This document shows positions 13,964 to 25,832 of a stretch of 45,706 nucleotides of DNA, in pieces. Source of the stretch: a bacterium (lineage in GTDB: Bacteria > JAJVIF01 > JAGGVT01); the NCBI GenBank assembly GCA_021157815.1, contig JAGGVT010000032.1, forward strand, positions 1 to 45,706, written 5' to 3'. The translations under genes and the position numbers were made by a program. Positions within the stretch are counted from its first letter, which is position 1. Every line of letters starts with the position of its first letter. The notes beneath the pieces are model-generated. The model was not told where the DNA came from. It did no database searches and saw nothing but the letters and a program-made list of their open reading frames with translations.

Positions 13964-14149
13964 ATGTCTCAAAAATGTGATATATGTGGCAAGGGTCCGA
14001 TGTCTGGAAACAGTGTTTCGCACTCTCATCGAAAGACTCGTAGAAAATTCTACCCGAATCTTCACAGGGTTACCATTGAGGAAAACGGCAGGAAAGTAAG
14101 GAAGAAAATCTGCACCCGATGCCTTAAAACAATGTCTAAAGCTCGATAA
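13964..14149 (+). CDS. rpmB: Ribosomal protein bL28
   Basis: The 61-residue protein is bL28 of the large ribosomal subunit: KCDICGKGPMSGNSVSHSH at the start, then the basic TRRKFYPNL core. It is a zinc-binding (C+) version, with CDIC at the N-terminus and CTRC near the C-terminus, as in many bacteria. It is monocistronic: its own promoter lies upstream and a strong intrinsic terminator follows at 14180. Confidence 0.95.
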   Translation: MSQKCDICGKGPMSGNSVSHSHRKTRRKFYPNLHRVTIEENGRKVRKKICTRCLKTMSKAR

Positions 14150-14179
14150 GAACCGGACAAAAATCCACGCGTTAACCAG

Positions 14180-14201
14180 AAAGCCTTCGGGCTTTTTTTT
14201 T
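14180..14201 (+). terminator. Intrinsic terminator of rpmB
   Basis: AAAGCC-TTCG-GGCTTT stem with UUCG tetraloop followed by a run of T residues, 30 bases after the rpmB stop codon. Confidence 0.9.
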
Positions 14202-14331
14202 GCGCATATCTTGATATGCCTGGAAAGTTGTCCAGTGCCATACTGGAACAAGCAACAAATAACAGCATAGGGCTATAGAGCCTGTCGGGAAAACATGTTG
14301 AATTTTAAATATACTATTCTCCTGATAACTC

Positions 14332-14437
14332 TCGGGTGCCGCCCACACATCACGTCTTTTTGTGATTTGTGGGTGAAATGCGTAACTTAGCATCATGTCA
14401 CCCATAAAGCCGAGACGGCTGTATGGGCGGCACCCGA
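14332..14437. repeat. ~105-bp multi-stem repeat element, copy 1
   Basis: The ends TCGGGTGCCGCCCA and TGGGCGGCACCCGA are inverted complements. Inside are further stems (CACATCAC...GTGATTTGTG; CACCCAT/ATGGGCGG; AGCCG-AG-ACGGCT). A near-identical copy lies at 25728-25832; the two differ mainly in a ~13-base central stretch. Outer arms CTGTCGGGAAA (14283-) and TTTTCCGACAG (14460-) flank this copy, and part of the left one is also seen before copy 2. The rest of the 14202-14509 gap has no gene. Confidence 0.85.
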
Positions 14438-25542: not shown

Positions 25543-25727
25543 CCGATACCGACAAAAACAACGTCTGATTAACAAAATTAAGCGCCAGAATTATAGCATA
25601 CACAGGCAAAGGGCTTAAGCTTTGGAACACATCCGAACTTTGAACGTTTAAGAACTTAACCGAGCCCCGAACATTAGAGCATGTCGGGAAAGGCAATTTT
25701 TCTTAGTTTTCCTCATCTTAATCCAAG

Positions 25728-25832
25728 TCGGGTGCCGCCCACACATCACGTCTTTTTGTGATTTGTGGGTGAAATGCGTAACCTCGCTGCAAACACCCAT
25801 AAAGCCGGGACGGCTGTATGGGCGGCACCCGA
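25728..25832. repeat. ~105-bp multi-stem repeat element, copy 2
   Basis: Near-identical to 14332-14437: the ends TCGGGTGCCGCCCA/TGGGCGGCACCCGA, the inner CACATCAC-GTGATTTGTG stem and the AGCCG-GG-ACGGCT stem are kept, while the central ~13 bases differ (CTCGCTGCAAAC here). GAGCATGTCGGGAAA at 25676 matches the left outer arm of copy 1. It lies in the 380-base gap 25543-25922, which has no gene. Confidence 0.85.

What the first reader, a model, noticed from the sequence alone, without database searches (positions are those of the whole stretch)
14332..14437. Two copies of a ~105-bp multi-stem element with conserved stems and variable centre
The copies at 14332-14437 and 25728-25832 share long terminal arms and two internal stems almost base for base, but differ in a ~13-base central stretch. 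This pattern could be a folded RNA or cruciform with a variable loop rather than a simple terminator, and it has outer arms (GTCGGGAAA) of its own.
Basis: seen in the sequence. Interest (0 to 1): 0.6.

Follow-up and report, generated by a model that had tools for sequence, protein, structure and literature searches.

The report
REPIN family with its own transposase
The repeated folded element is a small mobile DNA pair (a REPIN) scattered about 65 times between genes of an uncultured bacterium, and the single-strand transposase gene that carries its two ends was found in the same genome, so it is a variant of a known kind of selfish DNA and probably not a new functional RNA.

Summary
Both copies are present, fold into a three-hairpin clover, and differ mainly in a ~13-nt centre. 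The interpretation changes. The genome holds 65 full-length copies plus ~15 degenerate ones, 62 of 66 checked lying between genes. The element is two inverted ~50-nt units: a foot (Y)CGGGTGCCG followed by a hairpin, separated by a variable spacer. On another contig, one intact HUH/Y1 gene (NCBIfam 'REP-associated tyrosine transposase', above cut-off) is flanked by that same unit in inverted orientation. All seven orthologues found in three genomes of this small phylum are flanked by inverted units with a GGGTGCCG-type foot but their own hairpins, and dispersed copies of several of these occur in the same genomes. The fourth genome lacks both. So this is a REPIN/RAYT (REPtron) system whose foot is neither GTAG nor CGTC. 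Mobilisation by the RAYT is inferred, not shown. New variant of a known kind.

The parts
14332..14437 (+). REPIN copy 1 (106 bp): two inverted REP units and a variable spacer
14332..14381 (+). Left REP of copy 1: foot TCGGGTGCCG plus hairpin CCCACAcATCAC-GTCTTTTT-GTGATtTGTGGG and tail TGAAATGC; positions 1-50 of the consensus, matching the REPs that flank the RAYT gene
14382..14398 (+).
   Evidence: spacer columns 74% conserved against 98% in the left hairpin
14399..14437 (-). Right REP of copy 1, inverted: same foot, different hairpin (AGCCG-AGA-CGGCT inside CCCATA/TATGGG)
14278..14331 (+). Left part of the carrier MITE, terminal inverted repeat GAGCCTGTCGGGAAA
14438..14474 (+). Right part of the carrier MITE, ending CCTTTTCCGACAGGGCC
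25728..25832 (+). REPIN copy 2 (105 bp)
25728..25777 (+). Left REP of copy 2
25794..25832 (-). Right REP of copy 2 (inverted)
25677..25727 (+). One end of a related MITE (GAGCATGTCGGGAAAGG..) left of copy 2; no matching right end

Best explanation
The element is a REPIN: two inverted REP units with a variable spacer, a non-autonomous element whose partner is a single-copy REP-associated tyrosine transposase (RAYT/TnpA_REP) at G000:C84:16586-17131. Proposed mechanism: when the DNA is single-stranded, for instance on the lagging-strand template, each REP folds into a hairpin; the RAYT recognises foot plus hairpin, cuts with its HUH/tyrosine site, and lets the doublet be copied to a new intergenic place. 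Shown here: copy number, doublet structure, constraint on the hairpins with a free spacer, the same unit in inverted orientation on both sides of the RAYT gene, and the same arrangement with different REPs at six orthologues. Inferred: binding, cutting and transposition. In addition, many copies sit inside a ~197-bp MITE with terminal repeats GAGCCTGTCGGGAAAG and probably spread with it.
For: 65 full-length copies in one 3.2-Mb draft genome. 62 of 66 do not overlap a called ORF, where about 21% of the sequence is non-coding. The left hairpin is 98% conserved and the spacer 74%. Compensatory changes support the REP hairpins: 7 pairs against 3.0 shuffled, 25 cells against 8.3, with slid versions far lower. 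The RAYT gene is flanked by the unit in inverted orientation, starting 63 nt before the start codon and ending 56 nt after the stop. The protein passes NF047646 REP_Tyr_transpos at 92.8 bits (cut-off 80) and Pfam Y1_Tnp. The family profile's best solved structure is E. coli TnpA_REP, 4er8, at 3e-10. HUH (PEHVH) and YIHNNP motifs are present. Seven of seven orthologues are flanked by inverted REPs with the same foot type. REPs of several of them are dispersed in G001 and G003; G002 has neither a close RAYT nor these REPs.
Against: No transposition event, empty site or excision read was seen, since no close strain is available. At least 23 copies (both flanks recognised) sit inside the MITE, so part of the copy number may be due to the MITE's own transposase. 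The two REPs of a copy have different hairpins. The foot is not the GT[AG]G of canonical REPs. Most dispersed REPs sampled in G003 are single or tandem and not inverted doublets.
Confidence: 0.92

Rival explanations
1. A DDE-type MITE: the 106-bp core is simply the middle of a ~197-bp element with TGTCGGGAAA terminal repeats, spread by the transposase that recognises those repeats.
For: At least 23 copies have both MITE flanks. 35 TIR elements (with or without the core) show 18 identical 4-bp duplications against 5.2 by shuffling, and insert in small hairpin loops. No coreless copy of this flank pair was found.
Against: Many cores lie in other surroundings: a second repeat family, unique flanks, or a junction with another MITE. 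The same TIRs enclose an unrelated GC-rich interior. The core unit, without MITE flanks, brackets the RAYT gene.
Confidence: 0.05
2. A structured non-coding RNA or cis-regulatory element (riboswitch, sRNA, attenuator).
For: Very strong fold with compensatory changes.
Against: The fold is equally good on both strands. Among codirectional neighbours, orientation is 22 with and 18 against the genes. No Rfam family matches. Half-units flank a transposase gene.
Confidence: 0.02
3. A transcription terminator or mRNA-stabilising hairpin kept for host function.
For: Intergenic; copy 1 lies between converging genes. REPs elsewhere are reported to affect mRNA ends (PMC3733652).
Against: rpmB upstream of copy 1 already has its own hairpin and T-run near 14180. 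The core is not followed by a T-run and shows no orientation bias. This would in any case be a secondary role.
Confidence: 0.01

Closest known systems
REPINs and their RAYTs in Pseudomonas fluorescens SBW25 (PMC3116915)
   Same: Inverted REP doublet with conserved ends and a less conserved spacer; a hairpin or clover fold; a cognate RAYT flanked by the REPs; mostly extragenic; compensatory changes
   Different: Foot (Y)CGGGTGCCG in place of GTAG-type; the two REPs of a doublet have different hairpins; uncultured phylum; many copies also carried in a MITE
E. coli TnpA_REP (rayT) and REP/BIME
   Same: HUH/Y1 protein, best solved-structure hit 4er8; the class-2 tyrosine motif YxxxNP aligns
   Different: 24% identity; a GTAG-contact stretch is changed: FWEH becomes FWQD, followed by a GGGYDRN insertion
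TIRtrons/TIRYT (PMC3733652) and TnpA_Y1 subclass 2.6 or class 3 REPs (PMC6006769)
   Same: RAYT-like genes flanked by atypical inverted repeats without the GT[AG]G foot, some of them dispersed in the genome
   Different: Reported motifs GGGGWSAS or CnGA do not match GGGTGCCG; whether the proteins fall in subclass 2.6 was not tested

Membership tests
REPIN (REP doublet forming hairpin) | Two REP sequences in inverted orientation separated by a less conserved spacer | tested here: met
   left hairpin 98%, right hairpin 94%, spacer 74%; both ends share the foot GGGTGCCGCCCA
REPIN (REP doublet forming hairpin) | Dispersed at high copy, mostly extragenic | tested here: met
   65 full copies, 62 of 66 intergenic
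REPIN (REP doublet forming hairpin) | Same REP found next to a RAYT gene in the genome | tested here: met
REPIN (REP doublet forming hairpin) | Excision or transposition of the doublet | not testable with these tools
   needs reads or close strains
RAYT / TnpA_REP | HUH motif, Y1 tyrosine with class-2 signature YxxxNP, REP_Tyr_transpos profile above cut-off | tested here: met
RAYT / TnpA_REP | Low-copy gene flanked by inverted REPs, each RAYT with its own REP family | tested here: met
   7 of 7
Canonical GTAG (GT[AG]G) REP superfamily | GTAG or GTGG tetranucleotide at the 5' foot of the hairpin | tested here: not met
   foot GGGTGCCG, GGGTGGCG, GGGTGCCC or GGTGTCG
CGTC REP superfamily | CGTC foot and no dedicated transposase | tested here: not met
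TnpA_Y1 subclass 2.6 / RAYT group 5 | Placement in a tree with reference members | not tested
   reference sequences not at hand
MITE with short target duplication (carrier) | Terminal inverted repeats and target-site duplication | tested here: met
   18 of 35 with identical 4-mers, shuffled mean 5.2, maximum 13; applies to the ~197-bp carrier, not to the bare core
Rfam RNA family | Match above gathering score | tested here: not met
   none in the window

The most novel reading that the evidence does not exclude
A so far undescribed class of REPtrons in an uncultured phylum: RAYTs with a FWQDGGGYDRN insertion in place of the GTAG-contact stretch, reading a GGGTGCCG foot that stays nearly constant while each RAYT's hairpin changes freely, in a genome where these REPINs also travel inside MITEs that insert into hairpin loops.
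Probability: 0.5. Interest if true: 0.5.

Novelty: new variant of a known kind. Interest (0 to 1): 0.42.

Why it matters
It extends the RAYT/REPIN partnership to a deep uncultured lineage and offers a natural experiment on guide recognition: seven RAYTs share a foot and differ in hairpin, with the protein changed where E. coli TnpA_REP contacts GTAG. It also shows two mobile layers stacked in one palindrome, a REPIN inside a MITE inside a small hairpin, which could explain how long nested palindromes grow in bacterial genomes.

Tried and rejected
Rfam: nothing above gathering score; weak MIR5380 hits on both strands are the generic long palindrome. Genome contigs pattern scan: only L100 (the record of G001) is real; the other five are chance matches without the four-segment plan. 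The R1 model searched in the phylum's four held genomes, and a DNA search of 39 relatives, found no strong copy outside the window's own genome and only weak R1 hits in G001. An autonomous MITE parent was sought through DDE_Tnp_1: four hits, none examined further or seen to be tied to the elements. IS110-type bridge RNA and integron attC were considered because of the variable loop, and dropped once the RAYT flanks were found. No close relative of the RAYT on plasmids. The arm sequence is not in the held papers except as chance matches. Strand bias relative to genes: none. Structure prediction was not run, since the sequence profile already ranks 4er8 first.

Full report
Observation. They are identical outside a 12-13-base central stretch and one base in the third hairpin. 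Both strands fold equally well and far better than shuffled sequence (z about -7 to -9, 0 of 200 shuffles). No Rfam family matches. The outer arms GTCGGGAAA are complete around copy 1 but only one-sided at copy 2.

Copy number. The window is contig C178 of a 3.2-Mb draft genome, 90.9% complete. A DNA search gave at least 40 copies, and a covariance model built from 33 of them found 65 full-length copies at 90-134 bits plus about 15 degenerate or half copies. Three contigs (C3, C4, C208) begin 38 bases from a copy of the arm, as expected where repeats break an assembly. Sixty-two of 66 copies do not overlap a called ORF although about 21% of the sampled sequence is non-coding. ORFs were called crudely, so this is an estimate. 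Among copies with codirectional neighbours, 22 lie with and 18 against the genes.

Anatomy. The 65-copy alignment splits cleanly. Positions 11-44 (left hairpin) are 98% conserved, the spacer 45-66 is 74%, the right hairpin 67-96 is 94%. Read as two inverted units, the left is TCGGGTGCCG-CCCACAcATCAC-GTCTTTTT-GTGATtTGTGGG-TGAAATGC. The right, on the other strand, has the same foot with a different hairpin (AGCCG..CGGCT inside CCCATA/TATGGG). The segments CCCACA, TGTGGG, CACCCATA and TATGGG can pair in two ways: two separate REP hairpins, or a clover. The two folds are within about 1.3 kcal/mol of each other with RNA or DNA parameters. Pair counts support the structure: 7 pairs with changes on both sides against 3.0 in shuffles, 25 cells against 8.3, and slid controls far lower. 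One compensatory change (column 15 with 67, C-G to U-A) occurs at a pair that exists only in the two-hairpin form, not in the clover. Relatedness of copies inflates such counts, so this is support and not proof.

The partner gene. A Y1_Tnp search of the genome gave nine genes. One, C84:16586-17131, is flanked by core halves: the unit TCGGGTGCCGCCCACACATCACGTCTTTTTGTGATTTGTGGGTGAAATGC has its foot 63 nt before the start codon. The same unit, starting CCGGG in place of TCGGG, lies inverted with its foot ending 56 nt after the stop. These match consensus positions 1-50, the conserved unit, and stop about where the spacer of the copies begins to vary. The protein (182 aa, open) passes NCBIfam REP_Tyr_transpos (92.8 bits, cut-off 80) and Pfam Y1_Tnp. 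It has the HUH motif PEHVH and YIHNNP, the class-2 signature Y---NP described in PMC6006769. A profile of seven homologues ranks E. coli TnpA_REP 4er8 first (3e-10).

Comparative test. The protein has one orthologue in G001 and five homologues in G003 (46-60% identical), and only a remote match in G002. All seven are flanked by inverted repeats that share a foot (GGGTGCCG; variants GGGTGGCG, GGGTGCCC, GGTGTCG) but have different hairpins. In one query holding seven REPs of G001 and G003, G001 gave 18 and G003 54 matches, including about 18 copies of one REP and about 12 of another, while G002 gave none. G001 also has doublets with the same four-segment plan but different hairpins, and G003 one such doublet among the loci sampled (L212). 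Most dispersed REPs sampled in G003 are single or in tandem.

What it is. These are the defining traits of REPINs and REPtrons: an inverted REP doublet with a variable spacer, mostly extragenic, with a cognate RAYT flanked by the same REP (PMC3116915; PMC6006769). The first paper also discusses a hairpin and a clover fold of REPINs. The foot differs from GTAG and CGTC (PMC3733652) and from the GGGGWSAS motif of TIRtrons. In the protein the region that contacts GTAG in E. coli is changed: FWEH becomes FWQD, followed by GGGYDRN. Two other RAYTs in the same genome (L151, L152) keep FWEH. This is consistent with a different foot but is a correlation only.

The second layer. At least 23 copies sit between GAGCCTGTCGGGAAAGC..GATAACTC and CGTTTTGAATC..CCCGACAGGCTC, giving 197 bp. 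The same terminal repeats also enclose an unrelated GC-rich interior of similar length. Of 35 elements with both ends, 18 have identical 4-mers outside, against 5.2 after shuffling (maximum 13 of 2000 shuffles). Many of the outside arms form a small hairpin whose loop is the duplicated 4-mer (TTAA, TTTA, TTTC). So a MITE inserts into hairpin loops, and some carry the REPIN. No autonomous parent was identified (one search covers only one transposase family).

Limits. No empty site or excision was seen. The organism is named only through its relative G001 (uncultured bacterium LacPavin_0920_SED3_MAG_49_9). That the RAYT moves the REPIN is inference from established work on TnpA_REP (PMC8266576). 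The absence of an earlier description of this foot was checked only in papers held as full text.

Noticed in passing
L105-L130 (G000, e.g. C36:1910-2099, C67:9342-9532): A ~190-200-bp MITE family with the same TIR (TGTCGGGAAAGG) but a GC-rich interior with two inverted hairpins and no core. One copy (L107, 443 bp) has an internal tandem expansion.
   Followed up: partly
35 elements in G000: The MITEs insert into loops of small hairpins (AGCAGAGGGTTTAAACCCTCTGCT, CACCATGCTTTAGCATGGTG, TCATTCCCGCTTTCGCGGGAATGA) and duplicate the loop, so palindromes nest inside palindromes.
   Followed up: partly
G000 C43:1298, C105:6043, C104:3588, C144:5873: Four copies carry a similar ~30-bp hairpin (TCGTAGATCCCGAGTTTATCGAGGGA) inserted in the outer stem, in two on the 5' arm and in two on the 3' arm, as if the middle had been inverted.
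   Followed up: no
L151, L152 (G000 C182, C85): Two further RAYTs of the canonical FWEH type; L152 is bracketed by repeats GTAACCCGGGGACGCTTCCCCGGGCTTTAGTC, probably a second REP family of this genome.
   Followed up: partly
L150 (G000 C83): Another Y1 transposase gene lies between inverted AATAGGGACAGTCCCC repeats; related GGGACAGTCCCC sequences occur elsewhere in the genome.
   Followed up: no
G000 C103:31634-31739 and C52:4460-4564: Chimeric surroundings: one core has the MITE left end and the right half of the GC-rich MITE, another the MITE left end and the right flank of a second repeat family.
   Followed up: no
window 14000-14200: rpmB-like gene (ribosomal protein L28) ending near 14149 with its own hairpin and T-run terminator just upstream of copy 1.
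   Followed up: no
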